From Henningerozyma blattae CBS 6284 (taxonomy: Eukaryota > Ascomycota > Saccharomycetes > Saccharomycetales > Saccharomycetaceae), in the NCBI RefSeq assembly GCF_000315915.1, contig NC_020189.1:1178001-1242000 (forward strand): 64,000 nt of DNA. The letters are read 5' to 3'. The position numbers and the translations under genes were made by a program. The notes under the pieces were generated by a model that was not told where the DNA came from, did no database searches, and saw nothing but the letters and a program-made list of their open reading frames with translations. Numbering within the stretch: position 1 is the stretch's first letter; each line of letters opens with the position of its first letter. Shown here one piece after another: positions 24,311-39,700 of this stretch.

Positions 24311-24436
24311 ATGATACAAATGGGACAAAGTCACATTCTTACAAGCAATTGGTCTCCGGGGTTGTTAACCACCCGCCTCTTCACCTTCTGCTATTTCGTC
24401 TGGAACCCAACTCATGATTTGTCTAACTCTGACAAC
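24183..24436 (+). other. Frame-shifting coding-like 5' extension of TCB3
   Basis: An ATG at 24183 opens a frame that reads like a disordered yeast N-terminus for about 22 codons and then stops at 24279. From about 24250 the next frame continues the same composition to about 24374. The first frame resumes at 24375 for about 14 codons, and the TCB3 frame takes over at about 24414. This suggests a formerly continuous N-terminus broken by several indels, real or from sequencing. Confidence 0.45.
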
Positions 24437-27400
24437 ATGAGCAGTGAGGAAATTTTTGAAAAACCAAACAAATCTCGTCCTCATTCAGCCTCAAAGGCCT
24501 CTACTACTCATATATCTACCCACTCTCATTCTAATTCCAAAATGGATACTTCTCGTCCTCGCTCTACCTCGAAAGTGTCAGGTTCTACCAGTCCTCCTCC
24601 TGCTACTTCAAAAATCTCGTCAAAGAATGAAACTTTACATCCTATAGAAAGTGTTGCACTATCTATGAATACTGAAAAGGACTCCAATCGTAATACTTCT
24701 GAATTGCCTACCAAAACTTCATCTGCCCCTTTTGAGGACACACCTTTGCTTGATGAGGAGGAAAAGACCACTAAAAATTCCAAACCAATTAAAATGACTT
24801 CTACAGATTCATCTACCTTATACCCTTGGTCCAAAGTCGGTGTATTCCATCCAAGTGGTGTAGGAGCCCCTACTTCGAAAGATTCCAAAGTCATTAAAGC
24901 TTATATTTTGGAAAATTTTTACAATGATTTGTATTATAATGTTGCTACGGTCTTTGGTACTTGTTTCTTCTCTTGGGGGTTTGCCTATATTGGTATGTCA
25001 TGGTGGTCCATTGGATTCATCTTCTTTTGCTCTGCTGCTGTTTATAACAATGAATACCGTCGTTTCAATAGAAACATTAGAGATGATTTACAAAGAGTTA
25101 CTGTTCAAGAAACTTTAAGTGAAAGAACAGAAACTACTCTTTGGTTAAACTCCTTCTTATCTAAATTTTGGGTCATTTACATGCCTGTTCTTTCAAAGCA
25201 AGTTAAAGAGAGTGTCAACCCTACTTTAGCCGGTGTAGCTCCAGGTTATGGTATTGATGCCTTCTCTTTAGAAGAATTTACCTTGGGTTCAAAGGCTCCC
25301 GCCATTAGAGGCATCAAGACAAATACTAAAACAGGCAAGAAATTTGTTGAAATGGATTGGTCTTTTGCTTTTACTCCAAATGATGTTTCTGATATGACCC
25401 CAAAGGAGGTTGCTATTAAGGTCAATCCGAAGATTTCCTTGGGTGTCACCATTGGTAAAGGTGTTGTCTCCAAGACTGTTAGTGTTATTGTGGAAAATAT
25501 TAATGTGGCAGGTAAATTACGCGTTGGCATTGAGTTTGGTACTATTTTCCCAAATATCAAGATCGTCTCGATACAATTACTAGAACCTCCATTAATTGAC
25601 TTCGTCTTGAAACCAGTAGGTGGTGATACTTTAGGCTTGGATATCATGTCTTTCTTACCAGGTTTAAAGAGTACTGTTAAAAGTTTGATCGATTCTAATT
25701 TGGCGCCTATGTTATATGCTCCAAATAAGATGGATATTAATGTGGAAGATATCATGTCCGCTCAATCTAATGATGCAACTGGTGTATTGGCTGTCACTAT
25801 CCACGATGCTGCAGCTTTAAAAAGCTCAGGATTTATTACAAATACTGTCGATCCTTATGTGACAATTTCTACTGAAAATAGTGTAAAAAATAATGAACCA
25901 TCTGTAAAGACTAAAGTTATTAACGATTCAAAGTCTCCAAAATGGAATGAGACACATTATTTGACAGTTAATAGTTTACAACAAAAGTTATTTTTGAAAT
26001 GTTTTGATTTTAATGATGTTCGTAGTGACACTTTAATTGGAGAATTAGAAATTACTTTAGAAGAATTACTTCAAGAAAATTCATTAGAAAATCAATCAAC
26101 CGAATTATTAATTGGTACTCAACCTAAAGGCCAATTGAATTACTCTTTAAATTGGTTTCCTTGCATTCAAAAGAGTGAAGATAAAGTTGCCAAAGGTACC
26201 ACTGACGATAAAAAGAAACTAGAATCTACAACTGAACAAAATAATCAAGAAGAAAATGATGCTTTCGACGATGTCGACGTTGGTATTATTAAATTCACTT
26301 TACAAAATATTAAATACTTGGATACTTCTGGAACTGTTACTGGCACGTTAAGTCCTTCTGCGGAACTATATTTGAATAATGAACTAGTCAAAAGTTATAG
26401 AACATTAAGAAGAATCAATGAACCTTCTTGGGGCGAAACAACTGAAATTTTCATCCCTTCAAAATCAAATTCTAAAATTAGAATAGATATCTTTGATCAA
26501 GGTATGAATGGTAAAGATCTGATATGTCAGTACAATGGCTCCTTGGAAGATATTTTGAACTCTCTATCCACAGGAAATGGCTTTATTAAAGGTTCTCCAC
26601 AAGGTGAAATATATGTTGATGCTCAATGGAAACCTGTTACTGTCTCTACTAATTTCAGTGCTTCTACCACTGCCCGTGATCCTATTGGTTCTCTTAAATT
26701 GTTTGTCAAGGATGCCAATATTGCCGGCAGTTTAGCCGGTATTGGTGATATTGATCCTTATTTTACTGTTGCCGTTAATAGACATTTGAAATTCAAATCT
26801 CCTCATTTCACAGAGACGAGAACTCCAATTTTTAATAGAGAAGTTTTCATTCCTATTACTTCTGAAAATCAAAATATTACCCTTTCATTATTTGATTTTC
26901 AAGGTATCGGTGGTGATAGGTTTATTGGCCAGTATCAGATTACAGCAAATGAACTAATACAAAAAGATGAAAAGACTAATTTATTTTTACCTGTAACTAG
27001 AGCTCCAAAATTGACTAAAATTATTTTAAATGATAAACACAATTTGAAAACTGAGACCACAGTTACTTTAACTGTTCAATTTATTTCAACTGTTCCTGTT
27101 TATACAGTTGAAGAAGCCGAAGAAATTAATCTGTTAGAGGATGAGTTATCTGAAAAGAAGAGATTATTCCAAATTGAACAAGAAAAACTTAAAAAAGAGA
27201 TGGATATGAAACCAAGTGAGTACGAACTTACCGAAATCGATAATCCATTCTATGCAGAGGAAAAGGCTATCAATAAAAAGAATAAGTTTGATTTATTACA
27301 ATTAATGGAATTCAATTCAGGTATTTTATCTTTAAACTTTATTAGTGGTACGCTGGAAAAATCTTCATCATATTTACATGTTACGTTTGATGACTTTGCT

Positions 27401-29356
27401 TATCCAAGTTTCTCCTCTTTAAAGAGCCAGGGTACAAATTTGGTTCCAGAGACAGGCTCTGCTTTTATCCGTGATTTAAATAATAGTACTGCTCATTTCA
27501 TTATTTCCAAGAAATTTATTGTTCAAGAAGCCTCCGATATTATCTCTCAAAATACTTTCAGAACATTAAGCTTGCTACAAAGTTCTCTTTCGAAACCTTT
27601 AAAATTAAAAGTTGGAAGCTCATATATTACTATTAAGTCAACATATAACCCAACTGCTGCTCCGTTAGATAGATCTGAATCAATCTTAGATACAGGTTAT
27701 TTACACTTGAAAATTATTTCTGCTGAGGGATTAATGTCTGCTGATAGAAATGGAAAATCAGATCCATTTGCTCGTGTTTTTGTTGATGGCCGTAAAGCAT
27801 TTAAAACAGAAGTTGTTAAAAAGACACTGTCACCTGTTTGGAATGCTACTGCCAAAATTGCAGTTCCATCAAGAAGATATTCTCAATTAGTTTTAGAAGT
27901 ATTTGATTGGGATATGGCTGGTGATAACGAAGAATTGGGGTTAGTTGGTCTAGATATTGAAGAATTAGAACCAAATAGAGAATATCACTGGAACTTACCA
28001 TTAAGTACCCAAGGTACAGTAAAGGTTAAGGGCAAATTCGTTCCAGAATACATTAAGGCTTCCTTGCAGGAAAATGCTTCATCTTCTGGTATTGCTGCGG
28101 TTCCATTAAAGAAAATCGGTACTTCTAATGTCTTATTGAAGAGCGGTGGTAATGTTGTTAATGCTGGTGTAGGTGGATTGCAATTTGGTGGTAAGATGTT
28201 GAAGAAAGGTGTAGGATTGGGTGGTGATATTGTTAAAAAGACAAAAAATGAAAATAGCTCACATACACATGAAAAGGGGCACGAAAAAGACACCACTAAG
28301 GAAAATATTGATAGTAACCATGACAGACCAGTTAAACCAACTCCTAGAAGATCTCTTTCTAAGAAGGGTGATGATAGCCATAAAAGGAGATCATTCTCTT
28401 TTATCCGCGACAGAATATCTAGTGACAGTAAGCCAGAAAAGACTCATGAGAGAAATTCTTCTGGAGCCTCTGAGGCAGTTTCTACAGAAGCCGCCCAATC
28501 AAAGAGTAAGAGAACATCATTTGAAAGACCATATCCTCATAGACACGCCTCAACTAGCCGTTCAGTTCATTCATCTCAGGAAAAAGCACCTTCATCTCCT
28601 AAAGTTAAACCACCTTCATCTCCTAAAATCAAAACTCCATCCTCACCTAAAGTAAAAACACCTTCGTCTCCTAGAATGAAGGTTCCTCACACAAAGACCC
28701 CGCAGACAGCTACTCAAGAGAAGGATTCTAACCAATCTCTAAAGAATACTGCTGAGTATGATCCTTCCATTCCGAATCAAGAATATGTCAAAGTTCCAGC
28801 CAACAGTTTAGCTAATAAACCTGAAACAACTGATAAGCAATCCGAACATGCTAATCACTACCATAAGGGTAATGGTGGAGTTGGTGGTGCAACCAATTCC
28901 GGATCACACCAAAGAAGTGTTTCAAGAGCAAGTAGTTTTGCTAGAACTTTAGCTCCAAACGGTACTTATGAGGGTGTAGTGAAAGTGATTGCCGCTGAAA
29001 AAGTTGCCAAGAATGTACAAATCAAAGTTTCATTAGCACAAGGTGGCCGTATGAAACCTTTATTCATGACAAAGACATTAAAAGCTGATGATAAAGGTGT
29101 TGTAGCCTTCAATGATGAAGGTAAATTCAAAGCTTCTCCAGAAGCCAATCTTGTATTTGGTGCCATTGCCCACCATAAATTCTCGAAGGATCGTGACATT
29201 GGTGTTGCTCAAATCAACTTAGATGATGAGCAAATCCAGCAAGAAAACAATATTGCCATCAAATTAGGGGATGGCCATGTTGTCGTTAAAGTTGATTATG
29301 GTGGAGAAGCTTTAAATACCCCCCCTCTTCCTGAGATTCCCCCAGAACATCGGTGA
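24311..29356 (+). CDS. TCB3: Tricalbin Tcb3, ER-plasma membrane tether
   Basis: An extended-synaptotagmin homologue tethering cortical ER to the plasma membrane. From the ATG at 24311 it has 1681 residues; an alternative ATG at 24437 (Met43) gives 1639. After a Ser/Thr-rich N-terminus come an ER hairpin (about 207-250), a lipid-transfer SMP domain (about 270-480) and several C2 domains starting near 490, 665, 790 and 1135. The C2 near 1135 keeps Ca-binding aspartates (DRNGKSDPFARV, DWDMAGDNEE). The C-terminal part has Pro/Ser/Lys repeats (SSPKVK type) and a final C2-like region. S. cerevisiae Tcb3 has 1545. The true 5' end is uncertain: coding-like sequence extends back to an ATG at 24183 but changes frame three times. 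Confidence 0.94.
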   Translation: MIQMGQSHILTSNWSPGLLTTRLFTFCYFVWNPTHDLSNSDNMSSEEIFEKPNKSRPHSASKASTTHISTHSHSNSKMDTSRPRSTSKVSGSTSPPPATSKISSKNETLHPIESVALSMNTEKDSNRNTSELPTKTSSAPFEDTPLLDEEEKTTKNSKPIKMTSTDSSTLYPWSKVGVFHPSGVGAPTSKDSKVIKAYILENFYNDLYYNVATVFGTCFFSWGFAYIGMSWWSIGFIFFCSAAVYNNEYRRFNRNIRDDLQRVTVQETLSERTETTLWLNSFLSKFWVIYMPVLSKQVKESVNPTLAGVAPGYGIDAFSLEEFTLGSKAPAIRGIKTNTKTGKKFVEMDWSFAFTPNDVSDMTPKEVAIKVNPKISLGVTIGKGVVSKTVSVIVENINVAGKLRVGIEFGTIFPNIKIVSIQLLEPPLIDFVLKPVGGDTLGLDIMSFLPGLKSTVKSLIDSNLAPMLYAPNKMDINVEDIMSAQSNDATGVLAVTIHDAAALKSSGFITNTVDPYVTISTENSVKNNEPSVKTKVINDSKSPKWNETHYLTVNSLQQKLFLKCFDFNDVRSDTLIGELEITLEELLQENSLENQSTELLIGTQPKGQLNYSLNWFPCIQKSEDKVAKGTTDDKKKLESTTEQNNQEENDAFDDVDVGIIKFTLQNIKYLDTSGTVTGTLSPSAELYLNNELVKSYRTLRRINEPSWGETTEIFIPSKSNSKIRIDIFDQGMNGKDLICQYNGSLEDILNSLSTGNGFIKGSPQGEIYVDAQWKPVTVSTNFSASTTARDPIGSLKLFVKDANIAGSLAGIGDIDPYFTVAVNRHLKFKSPHFTETRTPIFNREVFIPITSENQNITLSLFDFQGIGGDRFIGQYQITANELIQKDEKTNLFLPVTRAPKLTKIILNDKHNLKTETTVTLTVQFISTVPVYTVEEAEEINLLEDELSEKKRLFQIEQEKLKKEMDMKPSEYELTEIDNPFYAEEKAINKKNKFDLLQLMEFNSGILSLNFISGTLEKSSSYLHVTFDDFAYPSFSSLKSQGTNLVPETGSAFIRDLNNSTAHFIISKKFIVQEASDIISQNTFRTLSLLQSSLSKPLKLKVGSSYITIKSTYNPTAAPLDRSESILDTGYLHLKIISAEGLMSADRNGKSDPFARVFVDGRKAFKTEVVKKTLSPVWNATAKIAVPSRRYSQLVLEVFDWDMAGDNEELGLVGLDIEELEPNREYHWNLPLSTQGTVKVKGKFVPEYIKASLQENASSSGIAAVPLKKIGTSNVLLKSGGNVVNAGVGGLQFGGKMLKKGVGLGGDIVKKTKNENSSHTHEKGHEKDTTKENIDSNHDRPVKPTPRRSLSKKGDDSHKRRSFSFIRDRISSDSKPEKTHERNSSGASEAVSTEAAQSKSKRTSFERPYPHRHASTSRSVHSSQEKAPSSPKVKPPSSPKIKTPSSPKVKTPSSPRMKVPHTKTPQTATQEKDSNQSLKNTAEYDPSIPNQEYVKVPANSLANKPETTDKQSEHANHYHKGNGGVGGATNSGSHQRSVSRASSFARTLAPNGTYEGVVKVIAAEKVAKNVQIKVSLAQGGRMKPLFMTKTLKADDKGVVAFNDEGKFKASPEANLVFGAIAHHKFSKDRDIGVAQINLDDEQIQQENNIAIKLGDGHVVVKVDYGGEALNTPPLPEIPPEHR

Positions 29357-30305: not shown

Positions 30306-33300
30306 ATGTCTGAAGCTCCTGTTGCTCCATTAACTGAAGCGGCTGCTGCTGTCGAGTCATCTTCTGTTACAAATACTCCTTCTGCCGCGGGTACTCCAGA
30401 ACCTGGTACTGCGGTAAAGAAAGAAAAGAAGAAGAAAGATAAGAAGAAGAAGGAGAAGAAGGAACCAAAGGATAGTGAGGAGACTCCTTCTAGCATTGAA
30501 GATAGTGCAGAAAAAGAAAGAAAAAAAACTAAGAAAAAGGATAAAAAACCTAAAGAAAAGAAGGAAAAGAAAAAGTCTTCTGAAGAATCTGTTTCTGCTA
30601 CTTCAGATGTTTCTTCCAATACAGATCAATCTTCTGTAAATAAGGAAAAGAAAGATAAGAAAGACAAGAAAGACAAGAAAGAGAAGAAAGACAAGAAAGA
30701 GAATGAAGAGAATGAAGAGAATGAAGAGAAGGAAGAGAAGGAAGAGAAGGAAGAGAAGGAAGAGAAGGAAGAAAAAAAGGATAAGAAGGATAAGAAGGAC
30801 AAGAAGGATAAGAAGGATAAGAAGGAAAAGAAGGAAAAGAAGGAAAAGAAGGAGAAGAAGGAAAGGAAGGAGAAGAAAGAAAAAAAAGAGAAGAAGGAAA
30901 AGAAAGAAAAAAAATCTAAGTCTGAATCTGAAACTTTTTCATCTGCAGCTTCTGCCGCTGCTTTCATTGACACCACTACTGACTCTACTAGTAACTCCAG
31001 TACCAATACTGGAATTATTATTCCAAATGAAACTTTTGATATTGAAAAAGTAGTGCCAAAACCAGAAGCTTCAGCTGAAATATCTGATGCTTACAGAGTT
31101 CATGCTCGTCCAGATTATGGTACTATTGGTACCAAAGTCGATGTCTTAACTAATCATGTTTTAATGTCTACTGGTGATGATGTTTTGGCAAAGCAAGGTG
31201 TCGTAGCTGATGATAAAATTGACCCTTGGTGGAAGAAGGCTTGGGTTTATACTTATCGTATCGATTTCAAACCTCCTGAAAAAAAGATACCACCTGGTAG
31301 GGGACCAAGAAGAGGTCCACCTCCACCACCACCAGAATTATCTAAGCCAAAAAGATACCAACTGATCGAATCGCTGTTCCATGAAGATGAAACATTATTT
31401 AGATACAAGGATCGTATTTCATTCAATGGTGAAGATTCTCTATGCTCGCATGTTCCACTAGAGGAGTTTACTTTATTTGATGGTTGTTGGGAAGTTTCAA
31501 ATAAGCAACAAAAGAAGAAAACCGTTGCAAAGGAAGCTACTAGCGTTGCTTTAGAACCAGAATTGGAAGAACTAGTTTCACAAATCACTTTAAAATTTAC
31601 TGGTAAAGTCTGTCTACGTGATATTTACAAAGGTACTATTGAACAAGATACCGATTTCCAAGAAACTAAGATGTCTGCCCCAGAAAAGACTATCCTATTA
31701 AACTTATTAGGTGCTAAATTACTAGGTTGTAATCCAAATGTTTTCCAATGCAACGGTAATAAATTTTTTATCTTCAATAAAAATAGTATATGTGCTAGAT
31801 TTCAAGTAGGTGCTTATTTAATGCATGGTGTTTCTATTGCATTAAGAAATGTTTATGGTGCTATTACTTTGAATACAATCAATTTCACCTTACCATTTAT
31901 TAAACATACGAAATATTTGCCAGGTGATCCAAAATTTAAAGAAGATGAACCTGAAATGTCATTTACAGTCATGGATTGGATCCTAGAATGTTATCATACA
32001 ATTCAAGCTCAAAAGCAAAGACATTATATCGCTAAAGGTGTTCCAAGCATTAAAGAATTGAACTTCTTCGTTGAAAAAAATTTTGTTATTAAAGATTTAA
32101 TCAAAGGATTGAAAGTGTACCGTCCATATATTAATTATAGTATTAATCCAGATGGTACTCCAAAGCCACCGAAGAAGAGACAATCTAAAGGTTGTGCTGG
32201 TTTTGCTCGTGAAACTGCCGATTCTTTAAAATTCAATACTACACCAAGTGGGATGCAAAAGAATGGCATTCCAAAACAAGGTGAAAAGGAAATTAAAGTT
32301 ACTATCACTGAATATTTCCAAAAGAAATATGACATTAAATTAAAATATCCAGGCTTCAAATTGGTTACTTTAGGTTCTGATCCTGTCCCTGCTGAATGCT
32401 TGACTATTGTCCCTGGCCAAAAATTGAAGGGTCAAATCTCAGATGATGTTGCTATGATTAACTTTGCTGCTATTAGACCAGCGGAGAAATTTAGGATCAT
32501 TTCTGATTTAGCTTTACCAATGATCAGAAATGCTTTAACTGACAAAGATACTGGCACAGCTCCTCACGACTCTCAATTTAACTTTATGAGGGTTCCATCA
32601 CGTATCATTGATTCCCCTGTGATTCAATATAAGAAATCCATCGTTGAATATGTTGACAAACCTTATGGTACTACTGCCCAATTTACTAAAGAAGGCCATC
32701 AAGAATTAAAAGGTAATTGGAATATGGCGAAACATGAATTTATATCTACTGCTTATAAACCAATGGATTTGAGAGTTTTATATATTGACGATAAAGATGA
32801 CAATCCAAGCTCTGCATTATTAGAAGAATTATTAAGATGCTTGAAAAAATTTGTCTCTGATGTTGCCACTGTTGGAGTCCATTTCAATTTAGCAGGCTCT
32901 CCAATTTTGGTATCTCAATTCACTGCTCCAATGAAAGTCTTTGAAGGTAGTGGTGGCCGTGGTGGCAGAGGTGGTCGTGGTGGCCGTGGTGGTCGAGGTG
33001 GTCGTGGCCGTGGTGGCTTCTCTCGTGCTCCACCTTCTTTTAGGCTGTCACCTGGTGAAGAAAAGATTAACCAATTATTATCATCCATTCCACCAAATTC
33101 GTATGTCCTGTATGTTTTATCTCGTGGTAACAATGATTCAGTTTATAACAGATTAAAATATGTGACAGACTTAAAATATGGTATTCTAAACAATTGTGTT
33201 GTTTGGAATAATTTCAGAAAAAATTCCATTCAGTACAATGTTAATGTTGCCATGAAAATTAATTTGAAGATGAAAGGTGTTAATCATTCCTTAGCTAAAG

Positions 33301-34190
33301 ATCACATCATTGAATTGACTGATAATGAAGGATTACCATATATGATTGTGGGTGCAGATGTTACCCATTATCCTGAACTAGATGAGAGATCCATTTCCTC
33401 TCTTGTTGCATCGTTCGACGACAAATATGCTCAATTCCCAGGTGAATATTTGATGCAAGATAATGTTGGTGAAGAAATGATTACCAGAATTGGTTCCTTG
33501 GCATATGGTAGATTGAAAAAATATCAAGAGCATAATAACGGTAAACTGCCTAACTCTATCTTATTTTACAGAGATGGGGTTTCTGAAGGTCAATTTTCTC
33601 AGTTGGTACAAATTGAAGTTAAAGGCTTGAAGGAAGGTTTAAGAAAAGCTGGTTCTCAATTGTTGGGTGGTAAGAAATACGATCCTAAATTATCCACTAT
33701 TGCCGTCGTTAAGAGAAACCAAATTAGATTTATGCCTCTACAAGAAAATGCCGTCAATGAGAAGGCTGAAATAGCGGCTGTTCAATCTATGGGTAATGTA
33801 ATGCCAGGTACTGTGGTTGATCGTGGTGTTACTTCTAATGCACATTTTGATTTTTTCTTGCAATCTCAACAAGCTCTAAAAGGTACAGGTGTTCCAGGTC
33901 ATTATTGGTGTGTATATGATGAGAATATGTTAACATCTGATAAATTACAGTCCATAACTCACTCTCTATGTTACATCTTTGGCAGATCAAGTACCAGTGT
34001 AAAGGTTGCCTCTCCAGTATATTACGCAGATTTACTATGTGACCGTGCCGCTAGATTCTTTAAAGCAAACTATGATATTGCTAAGAATGAATTTGACAAA
34101 ATTAAGAAGAACAGGGATGACTGCCCTCCATCTAACTTATTATTACCTCCACCTAAAGATCAAGTTAAGAACGTTATGTACTATATTTGA
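30306..34190 (+). CDS. AGO1: Budding-yeast Argonaute (Ago1)
   Basis: A 1294-residue Argonaute, the guide-RNA-binding slicer of budding-yeast RNAi. Residues about 38-205 are a Lys/Glu/Asp-rich low-complexity tail. N, PAZ-region, MID and PIWI domains follow from about 260 on. The PIWI catalytic residues appear complete: Asp1018 (GADVTH), the likely glutamate finger Glu1057 (VGEEMIT), Asp1090 (YRDGVSEGQ) and Asp1242 (YYADLL), a D-E-D-D set; budding-yeast Argonautes use Asp where animal Ago2 has His. A Pro-rich loop lies near 330-343 and an RGG run at 883-904. The C-terminus ends in the usual hydrophobic MYYI. S. cerevisiae has no Argonaute. The gene lies in tandem after TCB3. The partner Dicer is not in the window. 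Confidence 0.97.
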   Translation: MSEAPVAPLTEAAAAVESSSVTNTPSAAGTPEPGTAVKKEKKKKDKKKKEKKEPKDSEETPSSIEDSAEKERKKTKKKDKKPKEKKEKKKSSEESVSATSDVSSNTDQSSVNKEKKDKKDKKDKKEKKDKKENEENEENEEKEEKEEKEEKEEKEEKKDKKDKKDKKDKKDKKEKKEKKEKKEKKERKEKKEKKEKKEKKEKKSKSESETFSSAASAAAFIDTTTDSTSNSSTNTGIIIPNETFDIEKVVPKPEASAEISDAYRVHARPDYGTIGTKVDVLTNHVLMSTGDDVLAKQGVVADDKIDPWWKKAWVYTYRIDFKPPEKKIPPGRGPRRGPPPPPPELSKPKRYQLIESLFHEDETLFRYKDRISFNGEDSLCSHVPLEEFTLFDGCWEVSNKQQKKKTVAKEATSVALEPELEELVSQITLKFTGKVCLRDIYKGTIEQDTDFQETKMSAPEKTILLNLLGAKLLGCNPNVFQCNGNKFFIFNKNSICARFQVGAYLMHGVSIALRNVYGAITLNTINFTLPFIKHTKYLPGDPKFKEDEPEMSFTVMDWILECYHTIQAQKQRHYIAKGVPSIKELNFFVEKNFVIKDLIKGLKVYRPYINYSINPDGTPKPPKKRQSKGCAGFARETADSLKFNTTPSGMQKNGIPKQGEKEIKVTITEYFQKKYDIKLKYPGFKLVTLGSDPVPAECLTIVPGQKLKGQISDDVAMINFAAIRPAEKFRIISDLALPMIRNALTDKDTGTAPHDSQFNFMRVPSRIIDSPVIQYKKSIVEYVDKPYGTTAQFTKEGHQELKGNWNMAKHEFISTAYKPMDLRVLYIDDKDDNPSSALLEELLRCLKKFVSDVATVGVHFNLAGSPILVSQFTAPMKVFEGSGGRGGRGGRGGRGGRGGRGRGGFSRAPPSFRLSPGEEKINQLLSSIPPNSYVLYVLSRGNNDSVYNRLKYVTDLKYGILNNCVVWNNFRKNSIQYNVNVAMKINLKMKGVNHSLAKDHIIELTDNEGLPYMIVGADVTHYPELDERSISSLVASFDDKYAQFPGEYLMQDNVGEEMITRIGSLAYGRLKKYQEHNNGKLPNSILFYRDGVSEGQFSQLVQIEVKGLKEGLRKAGSQLLGGKKYDPKLSTIAVVKRNQIRFMPLQENAVNEKAEIAAVQSMGNVMPGTVVDRGVTSNAHFDFFLQSQQALKGTGVPGHYWCVYDENMLTSDKLQSITHSLCYIFGRSSTSVKVASPVYYADLLCDRAARFFKANYDIAKNEFDKIKKNRDDCPPSNLLLPPPKDQVKNVMYYI
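30655..30920 (+). repeat. Purine-only AAGAAGGA-type repeat in AGO1
   Basis: Tandem and degenerate AAG/GAA/GAC/GAG codons encode KKDKK, KEEKE and KKEKK blocks. The plus strand is almost pure purine over more than 250 bp, which explains the long phantom Phe/Ser-rich frames on the other strand. Confidence 0.85.
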
Positions 34191-35984
34191 GTTATCATCA
34201 CTTCATCACTGGAACTCATTGTTGACTAGAAATCTATTATTGCTCGTTTTTCTATAATTATTTATACCTTCATACATTATAAATCATGTTCACGTTCCTT
34301 TTGTTTCATTTTGAATCTTTGTTTTTGAAGGTTAATATGCAACTTAAGTAAATATATAGAAAAAAAATTCTTAAAAAGTATCCATAGGAGAGTAACATTA
34401 CATGATTATTCATTTTTGTCCTATAATATTTCTGTGTAGTCAAGTTAGTTTTTCCATGTCCTTGGATAGATGATAAGCCTAATATGGCTCATTTTTTATT
34501 TTCTATTCTTTTATGATGGTGAATAAATAAAATGTATCCAACATTCTTGTATATTTTTAATTACTAACAAATTGTTTTTTTGTATTATACTTTGTAAGTT
34601 TCTTTTTGTTTTATCTTTTTTTCTAAGGTTACACTAACACTGCCCTTTTTTTGAACTTTTAATATCAATACTTTAACTACCACAACTTAACTTTGCAGCA
34701 GAGCCTATAATCAAAAAAGATACATTAATACTACGTTGAGGAATATTGTAAAACGATATCTGAATCATTTTGGGGCCAAGAAAATATGGTAAGACAAAAA
34801 TAAAAGAAAGAGTATAAAAAATAATAATCTTAGGGGAAAAATAACTTTTAATGTGAGAACTTGAGATGGTGATCATAATAGGAATATTTTTTGAGTATTA
34901 TTGAAGTAATTACAATTTCGTTCTTTTCTTTGAAGTTCGAAAGGTTAGACATTACCGACAAGGGCTGTCAACAAAGAAAGAAAAGTATTTGAAATGATCT
35001 GTTTAGATAACTTCAGAAGAATGATTTTGGTACAATTACAAGATAACAAAGTTTTTTATATATGTGTTAAATAGAGTTGGCACAACACTTGTATGGGATT
35101 TATAAAATAATGGAGTATCAACGTAGTACCATGATGCCTTATTATGAGAGTTATATCTTATCTAGTTGACACATATAAAGAATACTTATTTATGTCTCAA
35201 CTCTATCAAATTTCTTTTTTTACTGACTGCTTGTTTTACAATCTTATATCTTAACCCATTTTTGTTTAATCATTTGTGTTGACAATATTTGCTAAAAAAA
35301 AAGTTGACAATTTAGGCTATCAGCAAAGAAAAGGGTTGTAGAAGTAAAAAGATATAAGGAAGAAATAGTGTCTGGGGTAAGGGGAGACACTATGATGAGT
35401 TAGTAACAGAGAGATATAATGCTTTAGAATGTTCAGTTAACTCAAATAATGCAATCATAGAAAATATTAGCTCAATTTGGTTAGAAATAGCTAGTTATAA
35501 AGGAAATAGAAAGATAATCCTGGTCTTGTTTTATTTTATTTTGCTTGGGTGGGTATTTTTCCAAAAAAAGGAACTAAAAGAGGAGGATTCAGAGAGAAGA
35601 TCAGAGCATATTACTGCCCTTTATATACATGAGAATTAGGTGTAATGAGTATGAAAACGATGGTAAGTGTGTTTCAGGGGGTTCCCTAAATAGGGTGGCG
35701 CTATTTTTGAATAAAGTGGATGGATTGGTCTTAGTAGTCTGTGTGTCTAGTGTAGTTGGATTCAAGTATTTTATTCTTGGTACTGTACCAACAACAATAA
35801 CACCAACAACTGTTGTAGACATATTCTAAGTATATCAAATGTTAACTAAGCAATATAATAAAAAGTAATGTTGTCAAGTCTAAACTATAAGCAAAGCAAT
35901 CACACAATCTTATGACTACGAATCATACAATCACACAGTCGTGCGTTTAGGCAACTATAAGACTATGGGTCATAATGTTATGTA

Positions 35985-36010
35985 CTCAAGCAATTGTGCA
36001 ATTGCTTGAG
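35985..36010. repeat. 26-bp perfect palindromic repeat
   Basis: Arms CTCAAGCAATTG and CAATTGCTTGAG separated by two bases. This is a perfect 12-bp inverted repeat, the strongest short palindrome I noticed in the window. Confidence 0.85.
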
Positions 36011-36079
36011 AGTTAATAAACTAATATTCAGGATAAATAGTTCTATTTGATAAAGTATAAATAGGGCAGTTTATCCATC

Positions 36080-36104
36080 AAGAACTCCTAAGTTTAGAGT
36101 TCTT
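36080..36104. repeat. 8-bp hairpin downstream of TATAAATA
   Basis: AAGAACTC and GAGTTCTT with a 9-nt loop, 17 bp after a TATAAATA box. It could be part of an LTR R/U5 region or a terminator-like stem. Confidence 0.5.
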
Positions 36105-36388
36105 TTATATTAATTTTATAGTTAAAAAGAAAAAAAATAAGTTATTATTTAAGTACAAATAGTACTCTAGTATTAGTGAAAAGCCAATAACTAATACAAG
36201 TTTATCTAAGTCCATAATTATCTATTGAACAAAAATGATTATTACAACGACTATTATATAATCATCTGGATAGTATTTTACAGATGACTATAACCCTGAT
36301 TATTCTTATAACTATAACTTACTTATCTTATTCTGTGTAATTCTATATAGATGTCTCATGGGCATCGCTTTATATACAAGCGAGTTTA

Positions 36389-36410
36389 CGCGTCACAACA
36401 TGTTGACGCG
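36389..36410. repeat. Near-palindrome at a possible LTR junction
   Basis: CGCGTCA, a one-base bulge, then AACATGTTGACGCG. The CAACA/TGTTG centre is what an end-to-start LTR junction would look like. Confidence 0.4.
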
Positions 36411-36931
36411 AAGGTCTCTGATTTAGTTAGGGCTTGTAAGCTCCTAACCCTTGACACAGTGTACTGACAGTATCACTATGTCACAAAAATCTGTTGTAAT
36501 ACGAGACTGACAGGACAAGGATGGTGTTTCAGAGTTCGGATGGTACTGAGATCAGTAGTTACAGGTTGTATTACACAAGATTATTGTGTCTCCCCTTGGT
36601 CCTTCCTTTATAGTATATAATAGTATATTGATCTATACATGCTCCTTATATACTTCTTTAGAGCTGGACAGTTCTAGGTGCATAGTTACAAGATGCGGTA
36701 CACTCATTGAAACCTGGGTGTCATTCTTACTAATAGATGTACGAGATGAACCAGAAGTGGGTGCAGATTCAGCGGTTACAGTTGATGTTCCACGCCTGCT
36801 GAATAGTTGTTTCTCAGCTGTGGTCAGTTGCTCTGTCCTCTCTCGAGGCTTCTCTTGTACTGATTTTTTGTAAGTATTACGTGAAAGTCGACGGCACTTA
36901 GACGGTTTTACAACACGATAACGTATTTGAA

Positions 36932-37020
36932 GGGCGTGTGGTCTAGAGGTATGATTCTCGCTTTGGGTTGATATAATACAAAAATGCGAGAGGCCCTGGG
37001 TTCAATTCCCAGCTCGCCCC
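36932..37020 (+). tRNA. tP(UGG): tRNA-Pro (anticodon TGG) with intron
   Basis: Begins GGGCGTG and ends CTCGCCCC (discriminator C). The D arm holds the A box (TGGTCTAGAGG) and the T arm the B box (GGTTCAATTCC). The anticodon stem CTCGC (36957-36961) pairs with GCGAG (36986-36990), with the anticodon TGG at 36964-36966. A 17-nt intron (36968-36984) lies directly after position 37. The mature sequence is nearly identical to S. cerevisiae tP(UGG), which also has an intron. A T5 stretch at 37025-37029 can terminate Pol III. The 3' CCA is not encoded. Confidence 0.97.
36968..36984 (+). other. 17-nt tRNA intron
   Basis: Inserted between positions 37 and 38 of tRNA-Pro, the canonical site for the tRNA splicing endonuclease. 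It is shorter than the about 30-nt intron of the S. cerevisiae gene. Confidence 0.85.
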
Positions 37021-37070
37021 TATATTTTTGAATTGTATTTGGTTTGTCACATAGTGTGAGCTATTTTAGT

Positions 37071-37095
37071 CACGTGTATAAACCAAGATCACGTG
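37071..37095. promoter_or_regulatory. Paired CACGTG E-boxes
   Basis: CACGTG at 37071-37076 and 37090-37095, both preceded by T, 19 bp apart (start to start). They are sites for Cbf1/Pho4-type bHLH factors. The target gene is unclear because HMG1 starts 2.6 kb away. Confidence 0.4.
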
Positions 37096-37407
37096 ATAAC
37101 GGAATGGACATGTAGATTAACAAGTAAGTGAATCATGAACATAAATTCTATTTAAGAATCTAAAGCTAAAAGAATAAACTAGAGGGCTAAGATGGAACAA
37201 AGAGGTAAGAATCAGAAAACAAAAAGGACGAAATACAAAAGATGGAAGTGTATAGTGAACAAATCGGAACGTAATAATAATAATATTTAACTTACATAGG
37301 CTCATGTATATAGTTGTATAGTTTAATAAACAGTTGGTATTAAACTAGCAGCCAAAAAGATATACTACTGGGAGTAGCAAAGCATAAAATTGTTACATGG
37401 TTAAAGT

Positions 37408-37413
37408 CACGTG
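37408..37413. promoter_or_regulatory. CACGTG E-box
   Basis: In the context GTCACGTGAT, a good Cbf1 consensus (RTCACRTG). Confidence 0.35.
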
Positions 37414-38088
37414 ATATAGATATTTCTTCATAGCCTTTATTCATGCCGTAGTTTTAGCAATTACATTAGTAGATATTATCTAAGCAGTTGTCCAATAATT
37501 ATCTTTATTCCACAATTTTTTCTTTTTTATTTCTATGAAAGATGTTCTTTTTTATTTTTTTTTACCTATAGAAGCAAAAATACAAACAAATAGACCCTGG
37601 CTAAGAGTTTAAATGACATTTTTGAAACAACAAAGAAAAATTATTTATCTATCATTCATATTGTACTTAGTATGTGTTTTTTTGAAGGATAAACGTGGCT
37701 GTCAGATATTTGCAATAATTTCCATTATTAATATGTGGCGCAGTGATTTTTGAAGTTACGTGATGACTTTCTATTCAGATGAGATGAGATCTACAAGAAT
37801 ATATAAACACGAAGTTGAAAAGTTTTCACTATGACCAAGATATATAGAGAAAAGAAAGAAACGAAAAGTATCAACAAGAGTGATCTGGAAATCTGGAAAC
37901 TAATATTATTATATATTACTTATCTAGATACATTACATACCAATCAAATTATATAGTCCTTTAAGTTAAAGACTTCATTGTTGTTATCACTCAGGAATTA
38001 GTACAAGTAACTATCGAAGATAGAAGGCGTAATAATTACTGATAGAGAACAAGCAAAAAAAATATTACATTTGACAAAAATTGTACAT

Positions 38089-38094
38089 CACGTG
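38089..38094. promoter_or_regulatory. CACGTG E-box
   Basis: In the context CATCACGTGAC, a full RTCACRTG match. Confidence 0.35.
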
Positions 38095-38690
38095 ACTGTA
38101 ATTTATTTACAATTCAGTCTTAACGTAATTTTATTTAATTATTAAAATAACAAAAACTCATTTGTCCTTAATATAAGTAGAACTAAGTGACTTATAACAG
38201 TCTTAGATATATCGATAAATCTTGTTACCTATTATAGATATTATTTGAATAATCAGTTATATGGCGGCTACTCGGAAATTTCGTTGACGCGGAATATAAA
38301 ATAGAAAAAAAATTGGATTACTAGGACAACAGGAAAATCCTCTTAACTTTCTTTTATTCTAAACTTAAGTTCAATATTACTTAGGAGTTTTCAAGAGCCA
38401 ATCAAAATATAGCACAAGCTCAAGAAACTTCTATCATTTCCACATAATCGATTAGTGTTAGCCTTCATTTTCTTTTGTCAAGAGTTTCATTTTTGAGATT
38501 TTCGTAGGCATTCAAATAGCTGCTTTTAGGGTTTAATTGAATTCCACAAACATTCCGTGATCTAATATAATTCCTATTGTAATTAGAGAGATCAATATAG
38601 TTTAAATCCTTCTATCTCTATTCATTGAAATAATATTTTGAAAAATATTACTCAGTGGATTTAAAGAATCCTTTATACTTCTGTGTTTCC

Positions 38691-38696
38691 CACGTG
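38691..38696. promoter_or_regulatory. CACGTG E-box
   Basis: In the context CCCACGTGACT, about 1 kb before the HMG ATG and the nearest E-box to it. Confidence 0.35.
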
Positions 38697-39700
38697 ACTT
38701 TCTCTGACTAATTTAATTTTTTGTTGGATACGTAGGATCTCGTAAAGAGTACAGCCGTAGTATCCGGATAAAGCCTATTCAGAAAACCATCTCCTACTAA
38801 CTTAATCCTTTAAAGGAAATTAACTGCAAAATAATTACTGCTGGATAACACCGTTAGAGCAGCTAAGTGGATTAATTGAAAAATTGGCTAATTGAAATCA
38901 TTTAATTGTTGCTCAATATTTGTGTCTTAGTGCAAATTACTTACTAAGGACGAAAGTGTGAATAGAAAGGACAAATTATTGTGTCGAGATTGTTTCTGTC
39001 ATTGACGTTATTTAATTAGTGATCGTCCTGGAAAAGACGAAAAAAAAAAGATCACATATCATCATACTTTGATTCTCCTTCGTTTACCTTTTAACGACGC
39101 TAAACGATAGTACCGAAAAAACTCAAATACCGTTTACATATTTTTTCACTTATTTGGCAAATTACCAAAGTAACTCCATATTTTTTTTAATTTTGACATC
39201 GAATATTTAAAGGCAAATTTACTACCAGTGGTTGGAATTTTTAAATTGAATATAATTGGATTAGATTGGATTTGATTGAATTGAATTAGATTGTAAAATA
39301 AATCGAATTTTGTTAGTAGCTATAAAAAAAAAATAAATATTAAAGTAATATTGCCATTACAAGATACATCATTACTTATTAGACAAACTCTTGACTTTTG
39401 TTTTTGAATACTTTCAGAATATAAAATTACGGTTTAAATTTTAAGCAATAAAACATAATAAGAATTTTGCCCCTATTTGTTTTGTTTTTTTATTTTTTTT
39501 TTAGATCTTCATCAGTATATTCCAAATATTGTTTTAATCTTTCCCTTTTAATAATAATATACACTTTTAGTCGAAGTTACGACTCTAACTAAACAATTTA
39601 TTTATTTTAAAAAAAATCACCAATAGCGTCGTTTTACTAAATTAACGAAAAAATTAAAATAATAAAAAAAAAATAAGAAATTATAATACAAAACAGTAAA

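What the first reader, a model, noticed from the sequence alone, without database searches (positions are those of the whole stretch)
30306..34190. Complete Argonaute gene with an apparently intact slicer tetrad
Seen: a full PIWI domain with Asp1018, Glu1057, Asp1090 and Asp1242. Known: S. cerevisiae and many post-WGD yeasts have lost RNAi, while a few lineages keep AGO1 with a noncanonical Dicer, and budding-yeast Ago1 uses Asp as the fourth metal ligand. Inference: this species can silence transposons by RNAi, and the gene-poor, relic-bearing DNA directly downstream could be a source or target of small RNAs.
Basis: partly seen in the sequence, partly recalled or inferred. Interest (0 to 1): 0.75.

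Follow-up and report, generated by a model that had tools for sequence, protein, structure and literature searches.

The report
One of two yeast Argonaute genes
This is an intact RNA-interference gene of a budding yeast, and the same genome keeps a second, much-changed copy of it along with a Dicer gene, which makes the yeast a natural test of how two copies of such a gene divide their work.

Summary
ORF 30306-34190 (+), 1294 aa, is a full-length budding-yeast Argonaute (AGO-A). Asp1018, Glu1057, Asp1090 and Asp1242 fall on the KpAGO catalytic columns (which columns are catalytic is recalled) and are D, E, D, D in 15 of 15 aligned rows. The pair lies in a block of five gene pairs with the same order and orientation and silent sites are near saturation except in one PIWI patch; whole-genome duplication is the likely origin. 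The copies are unequal: AGO-A has a K/E-rich tail and strong codon bias (rank 4 of 71), AGO-B an RS-rich tail, a long branch and weak codon bias (62 of 71). The DNA downstream is LTR-like debris around a tRNA. RNAi activity is inferred; no small RNAs were examined. A new member of a known kind; the unequal pair is the interesting part.

The parts
30306..34190 (+). AGO-A: budding-yeast Argonaute, 1294 aa
30411..30950 (+). Lys/Glu-rich low-complexity N-terminal tail (about residues 36-215)
   Evidence: read from the translation; composition
31227..31616 (+). AGO_N domain (residues 308-437)
   Evidence: Pfam PF18236
31905..32195 (+). Fungal Ago_N_1 domain (residues 534-630), leading into the PAZ region
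   Evidence: Pfam PF18351
32949..33020 (+). RGG-repeat stretch before the MID/PIWI match (about residues 882-905)
   Evidence: read; six RGG triplets counted
33105..34061 (+). Piwi match (residues 934-1252)
   Evidence: Pfam PF02171
33357..33359 (+). Asp1018, tetrad
   Evidence: aligned column
33474..33476 (+). Glu1057, tetrad
   Evidence: aligned column
33573..33575 (+). Asp1090, tetrad
   Evidence: aligned column
34029..34031 (+). Asp1242, tetrad
   Evidence: aligned column
33717..34016 (+). Patch (residues 1138-1237) where AGO-A and AGO-B use the same codon more often than expected
24311..29356 (+). Tricalbin-like gene; paired gene on C2
   Evidence: Pfam; best other match in the genome
44163..48014 (+). 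Zn2Cys6-type gene (WAR1-like; type and name by reading and recall, no Pfam match); paired gene on C2
48806..50086 (-). ENTH-domain gene; paired gene on C2
   Evidence: Pfam; best other match in the genome
50439..55406 (-). C2H2 zinc-finger gene (type by reading); paired gene on C2
35857..36192 (.). dispersed repeat, LTR-like by size and copy number
36492..36915 (.). dispersed LTR-like repeat with inverted ends TGTTGTAA/TTACAACA, ending 16 bp before the tRNA
36932..37020 (+). tRNA gene with intron, probably Pro(UGG)
   Evidence: amino acid from reading and recall
37045..37397 (.). dispersed LTR-like repeat, TGTCA...TTACA
37700..38069 (.). dispersed LTR-like repeat, TGTCA...TTACA

Best explanation
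DCR1 cuts long dsRNA into siRNA duplexes; AGO-A loads one, cuts the passenger strand and then cuts complementary transcripts with its D-E-D-D tetrad, the main targets being Ty-type transposon transcripts. The gene is one of two AGO ohnologs left by the genome duplication; the other, AGO-B on contig C2, also keeps the tetrad but has diverged faster, carries an RS-rich tail and has weak codon bias, so it most likely does a low-level, conditional or differently located job. Shown here: gene structure, conserved tetrad columns, predicted fold, DCR1, second AGO, double synteny, largely saturated silent sites, codon-bias difference. Inferred: catalytic activity, pathway activity, targets, date of the duplication, division of labour.
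Against: No small-RNA, expression or genetic data were available. The tree does not reject AGO-A and AGO-B as sisters (AU p 0.061), and AGO-A, AGO-B, KpAGO and T. phaffii fall together in the best tree, weakly (60/62). A and B share four identical changes within columns invariant in the 12 other yeast rows. Residues 1138-1237 share codons beyond expectation (47 of 67 against 31.7-33.4; 0 of 2000 shuffles reach the top window), so silent sites are not saturated everywhere. No relic of the FPR-like or L6e gene was found beside AGO-A. The codon-bias reference set is only four genes. Dcr1 without a detectable Ago1 is reported in the C. auris group (PMC8262905, passage), so DCR1 beside AGO does not by itself prove RNAi.
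Confidence: 0.83

Rival explanations
1. The two AGO genes come from a later segmental duplication, or are ohnologs partly homogenised by gene conversion, so that their history is not a simple split at the whole-genome duplication.
For: A+B as sisters is not rejected (AU p 0.061); four identical private changes in otherwise invariant columns, three of them at 985-1041; a patch of excess codon identity at 1138-1237.
Against: Outside that patch codon sharing is as expected (22 of 24 windows with |z| under 2) and four-fold sites overall are at the saturation value. In the patch itself A and B are less alike in residues (69 of 100) than either is to KpAGO (77 and 76), and no state at 1117-1237 is private to the two, which speaks against recent conversion. 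AGO-B groups with KpAGO and T. phaffii (83/96, not starred); five collinear pairs of similar divergence with reciprocal gene presence.
Confidence: 0.13
2. AGO-B is the working RNAi Argonaute and AGO-A has taken another role.
For: AGO-B, not AGO-A, groups with KpAGO, and AGO-A with KpAGO as a pair is rejected (AU p 0.009); Pfam PAZ is found in AGO-B only.
Against: AGO-A is closer to KpAGO in sequence (59% against 48%), has the shorter branch (0.52 against 1.64), fewer changes in columns invariant in the 12 other yeast rows (20 against 28 of 268), more RGG triplets and stronger codon bias.
Confidence: 0.12
3. The RNAi pathway is inactive; both AGO genes and DCR1 are kept for other RNA work.
For: Presence of genes does not show activity; C. 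albicans SC5314 carries an Argonaute disabled by one PAZ change (PMC11047096, passages read).
Against: Full-length genes under constraint with tetrad, RNase III acidic residues and the PAZ-region Glu kept.
Confidence: 0.1

Closest known systems
KpAGO, Argonaute of Vanderwaltozyma (Kluyveromyces) polyspora, PDB 4f1n / 5the
   Same: Domain order, tetrad columns, RGG stretch, C-terminal MYYI; 59% identity over 1027 aligned positions
   Different: AGO-A has a long K/E-rich tail (the KpAGO row has only 15 residues there, being a crystallised construct) and is one of two copies in its genome
Argonautes of Tetrapisispora phaffii (TPHA_0B01610) and Naumovozyma dairenensis (NDAI_0D03150)
   Same: Same family and tetrad
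   Different: About 47% identical to AGO-A each; one hit per species is named, which does not prove single copy
Budding-yeast noncanonical Dicer, K. polysporus Dcr1, PDB 3rv0
   Same: The genome's DCR1 matches it at 330 bits and keeps the RNase III acidic residues
   Different: Long Asn/Thr and poly-Asn repeat between the two dsRNA-binding regions

Membership tests
Budding-yeast Argonaute (AGO1/KpAGO type) | N, PAZ, MID and PIWI in order, full-length alignment to KpAGO | tested here: met
   PAZ by alignment, not by the Pfam PAZ model
Budding-yeast Argonaute (AGO1/KpAGO type) | DEDD tetrad | tested here: met
   15 of 15 rows
Budding-yeast Argonaute (AGO1/KpAGO type) | Guide-directed target cleavage | not testable with these tools
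   needs protein and RNA
Budding-yeast RNAi pathway | A noncanonical DCR1 with RNase III acidic residues in the same genome | tested here: met
Budding-yeast RNAi pathway | DCR1-dependent 21-23-nt small RNAs | not testable with these tools
   no small-RNA data
Whole-genome-duplication ohnolog pair | Double conserved synteny | tested here: met
   five collinear pairs; best other match in the genome checked for three of the five
Whole-genome-duplication ohnolog pair | Divergence dating to the duplication | tested here: inconclusive
   four-fold sites at saturation overall but a patch of excess codon identity; sister relation not rejected (AU p 0.061)

The most novel reading that the evidence does not exclude
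The two Argonautes have split the work after genome duplication: AGO-A is an abundant general slicer, while AGO-B, with an RS-rich tail (37 RS/SR dipeptides against 0-3 in the 14 other rows) and fast-changing N, PAZ, L2 and MID regions but a conserved PIWI, is a low-level slicer controlled by SR-protein-kinase phosphorylation and nuclear import, for instance in meiosis or against a special class of transcripts. That would be a division of labour between Argonautes in a yeast lineage usually described with a single AGO1 (recalled).
Probability: 0.3. Interest if true: 0.65.

Novelty: new member of a known kind. Interest (0 to 1): 0.42.

Why it matters
Most yeasts near S. cerevisiae have lost RNAi. 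A species that kept two Argonaute copies together with DCR1, in a genome with many transposon remnants, lets one ask directly whether a duplicated minimal RNAi pathway divides its functions, with simple yeast genetics and only three genes.

Tried and rejected
Relics of the FPR-like or L6e gene (neighbours of AGO-B) in the gaps beside AGO-A: tblastn at E<=10 gave only short noise matches. A locus-specific dsRNA source downstream: the inverted repeats found in 34190-39700 are five pairs of 20-45 nt, AT-rich and 76-90% complementary, nothing like a long hairpin. Recent gene conversion: I first read as showing no patch of low silent divergence; on checking, residues 1138-1237 do show excess codon identity. 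Recent conversion is unlikely there because the residues do not show it, but an old tract or a codon-level constraint remains open; for this the confidence in the main reading was lowered from 0.85 to 0.83 and that of the duplication/conversion rival raised from 0.10 to 0.13. Reading the missing Pfam PAZ hit in AGO-A as domain loss: rejected by alignment. Publication of the AGO pair: of ten library searches, eight bore on it (two, 62 and 88, were on killer viruses and RS tails); I saw no title or abstract start in those listings that describes two Argonaute genes in this species, and read passages of seven papers. Wolfe et al. 2015 and Drinnenberg et al. 2009, likely places, are not held, so the pair may well be in print. 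Rows dropped: P0014 (895 aa, partial) was left out of alignments and trees; of 579 proteins found, 120 were listed and 13 (P0002-P0013, P0017) went into the first tree with AGO-A and AGO-B; the second tree left out P0017.
Full report
The window is G000:C5:1178001-1242000 of a 14,041,469-base genome in 10 contigs. A review table lists Tetrapisispora blattae CBS 6284 at 14.0 Mb and 10 chromosomes (PMC5499181, passages read); this makes T. blattae the likely source, which is inference.

DCR1. The genome has four matches to the RNase III domain. One, on C3 (L012 4790-7102, 770 aa), is DCR1: 330 bits to K. polysporus Dcr1, with Dicers_N, RNase III and two dsrm stretches. Its residues E141, D145, D215 and E218 are kept in 40 of 40 aligned rows and E138 in 39 of 40 (38 relatives, DCR1 itself and this genome's RNT1); that these are the RNase III active-site acids is recalled. 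A second match is RNT1 (345 bits to 5t16). The other two are a 276-aa protein (Ribonucleas_3_3 at 73.6 bits, PF00636 at 26.4 and 28.6), whose signature reads NEKFQLLGTHF in place of NERLEFLGDS, and a 381-aa protein (dsrm 33.5 bits; mL44 25.9, under its cut-off of 27); both look like mitochondrial ribosomal proteins, which is partly recalled. A genome search with DCR1 found only itself and RNT1.

The second Argonaute. Both genome searches, with the Piwi profile (2 of 2 candidates) and with the protein, found a second gene, AGO-B, on C2: 1244 aa, 46% identical to AGO-A over residues 195-1294 (44% by BLASTP over 1074 columns; 40% over 1208 aligned positions tails included), with Piwi, AGO_N, Ago_N_1 and PAZ by Pfam and the tetrad as D975, E1014, D1047, D1198.

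Origin of the pair. Of 20 non-nested window ORFs of at least 100 aa, five match the 160-kb C2 block at E<=1e-5: tricalbin-like, AGO, a Zn2Cys6-type gene, an ENTH gene and a C2H2 gene; all five keep the same order and consistent orientation, at 40-45% identity (the C2H2 gene has one further, weaker match in the block). Genes between them differ: an HMG-CoA reductase was seen only beside AGO-A, an FKBP/NPL (FPR3/4-like) and a ribosomal L6e gene only beside AGO-B. For AGO, ENTH and tricalbin the C2 copy is the best other match in the genome; the other two pairs were not checked genome-wide. From memory, HMG1, FPR3, RPL6A and TCB3 lie next to one another in S. cerevisiae, so an FPR-AGO-RPL6 order is what the ancestral locus could look like; no call tested this. 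Four-fold silent sites are at the saturation value overall (40 of 120 identical against 41.8 expected), while codon positions differ as under purifying selection (56, 68 and 42% identical at positions 1, 2 and 3).

One exception came out on checking. In 24 windows along the core, codon sharing at conserved residues is as expected except in two neighbouring windows at 1117-1237 (z 3.2 and 4.1). At 1138-1237, 47 of 67 conserved residues use the same codon against 31.7 (gene-wide usage) or 33.4 (local usage) expected, and 0 of 2000 shuffles reach the top window. An old conversion tract or a constraint on the codons themselves could do this. Recent conversion is unlikely: over those 100 residues A and B agree at 69, A and KpAGO at 77, B and KpAGO at 76, and no state at 1117-1237 is private to A and B.

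Tree. Without the Candida outgroup, AGO-B joins KpAGO and T. phaffii (83/96, below the starred level); AGO-A with KpAGO as a pair is rejected (AU p 0.009); AGO-A with AGO-B is not rejected (p 0.061); AGO-B with T. phaffii is not rejected (p 0.336); the four rows together are one side of a branch in the best tree, weakly (60/62). In the first tree, with Candida, these rows were unresolved. A and B share four identical changes in columns invariant in the 12 other yeast rows, but over all ungapped columns they share only 8 private states, fewer than AGO-B shares with KpAGO (18), N. dairenensis (17) or T. phaffii (13); the N. dairenensis figure shows that long branches add chance sharing. I take whole-genome duplication as likely, not proven.

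How the two differ. AGO-B has the longer branch (1.64 against 0.52). Among 268 columns invariant in the 12 other yeast rows AGO-A departs at 20 and AGO-B at 28. Five of the 12 rows were left out in turn as controls: T. phaffii departs at 33 of 301 columns, N. dairenensis 21 of 289, KpAGO 18 of 286, P0009 14 of 282, P0003 4 of 272; on the same backgrounds AGO-A departs at 26, 23, 22, 20 and 23, and AGO-B at 38, 35, 35, 31 and 28. So AGO-B exceeds every control, and AGO-A lies below T. phaffii and above the other four. The N-terminal tail of AGO-A is K/E-rich (83 KK/KE/EK dipeptides), like P0002 (48); that of AGO-B has 37 RS/SR dipeptides against 0-3 in the other 14 rows, five of which have tails of only 11-15 residues, the KpAGO row among them being a construct. 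RGG triplets are 6 against 1. By region, AGO-B is least like KpAGO before MID (33%; T. phaffii is lower there, 29%), in L2 (40%) and in PAZ (41%), and close to the others in PIWI (61%, other yeast rows 62-69%). A codon-adaptation index referenced to four ribosomal and histone genes ranks AGO-A 4th and AGO-B 62nd of 71 ORFs of at least 200 aa in the window and the C2 block; the contrast stays in the cores without K, E, G and R codons (0.449 against 0.261). This suggests that AGO-A is the abundant protein. The RS tail invites the idea of kinase-controlled nuclear import, a guess from other RS proteins.

The PAZ glutamate. In C. albicans a Glu-to-Lys change at Ago1 position 361, in PAZ, inactivates RNAi (PMC11047096, passages read). 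Both copies keep a Glu in the VPAEC motif, a column invariant in the 22-row alignment that contains AGO-A; that this is the equivalent position is inferred.

The downstream DNA. The 5.5 kb between AGO-A and the HMG-CoA reductase gene holds a tRNA gene at 36932-37020 (probably Pro with intron, by reading) and stretches repeated elsewhere in the genome: 52 matched stretches for 36280-37040 (40 of 120 candidates scored), 47 for 34230-36280 (40 of 43), 60 for 37030-39680 (40 of 108), self matches included, so lower bounds. Three have LTR-like ends (TGT...ACA) by reading: 36492-36915, 37045-37397, 37700-38069. The RVT_2 profile gives 24 matches in the genome, 20 over the cut-off, 15 of the 24 with stops inside. 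So there are transposons to silence, but this cluster looks like usual LTR debris beside a tRNA gene, without a long inverted repeat. A review states that siRNAs in N. castellii and C. albicans correspond mostly to transposable elements and Y' elements (PMC5499181, passage read).

What is known. Budding-yeast RNAi with an Argonaute and a noncanonical Dicer is established (PMC5499181 and PMC7528652, passages read). A killer-toxin paper names T. blattae among yeasts without KKT genes (PMC7888664, passages read; its figure on RNAi presence was not seen). In the listings of eight library searches I saw no paper describing two Argonautes here, but a key comparative paper is not held. Verdict: the window gene is an ordinary, well-preserved member of a known family; the retained and unequal pair raises it to moderate interest.

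Noticed in passing
L008 1498-5232 (G000:C2:1477173-1480907): Second Argonaute gene with an RS-rich N-terminal tail and an intact DEDD tetrad.
   Followed up: yes
window 33717-34016: AGO-A residues 1138-1237: AGO-A and AGO-B use the same codon at 47 of 67 conserved residues against about 32-33 expected; old conversion or a constraint on the codons, unexplained.
   Followed up: partly
L012 4790-7102: DCR1 carries a long Asn/Thr then poly-Asn repeat between its two dsRNA-binding regions.
   Followed up: no
window 36492-36915: LTR-like repeat with inverted ends finishing 16 bp before a tRNA gene, close to the spacing recalled for Ty3-type insertion.
   Followed up: partly
whole genome G000: 24 RVT_2 matches, 15 with stops inside and 9 without: Ty1/copia-type remnants in mixed states of decay.
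   Followed up: no
P0135 and P0136: Naumovozyma dairenensis shows two DCR1-like proteins and one named Argonaute hit (P0012), the reverse of this genome's two AGO and one DCR1.
   Followed up: no
   Followed up: no
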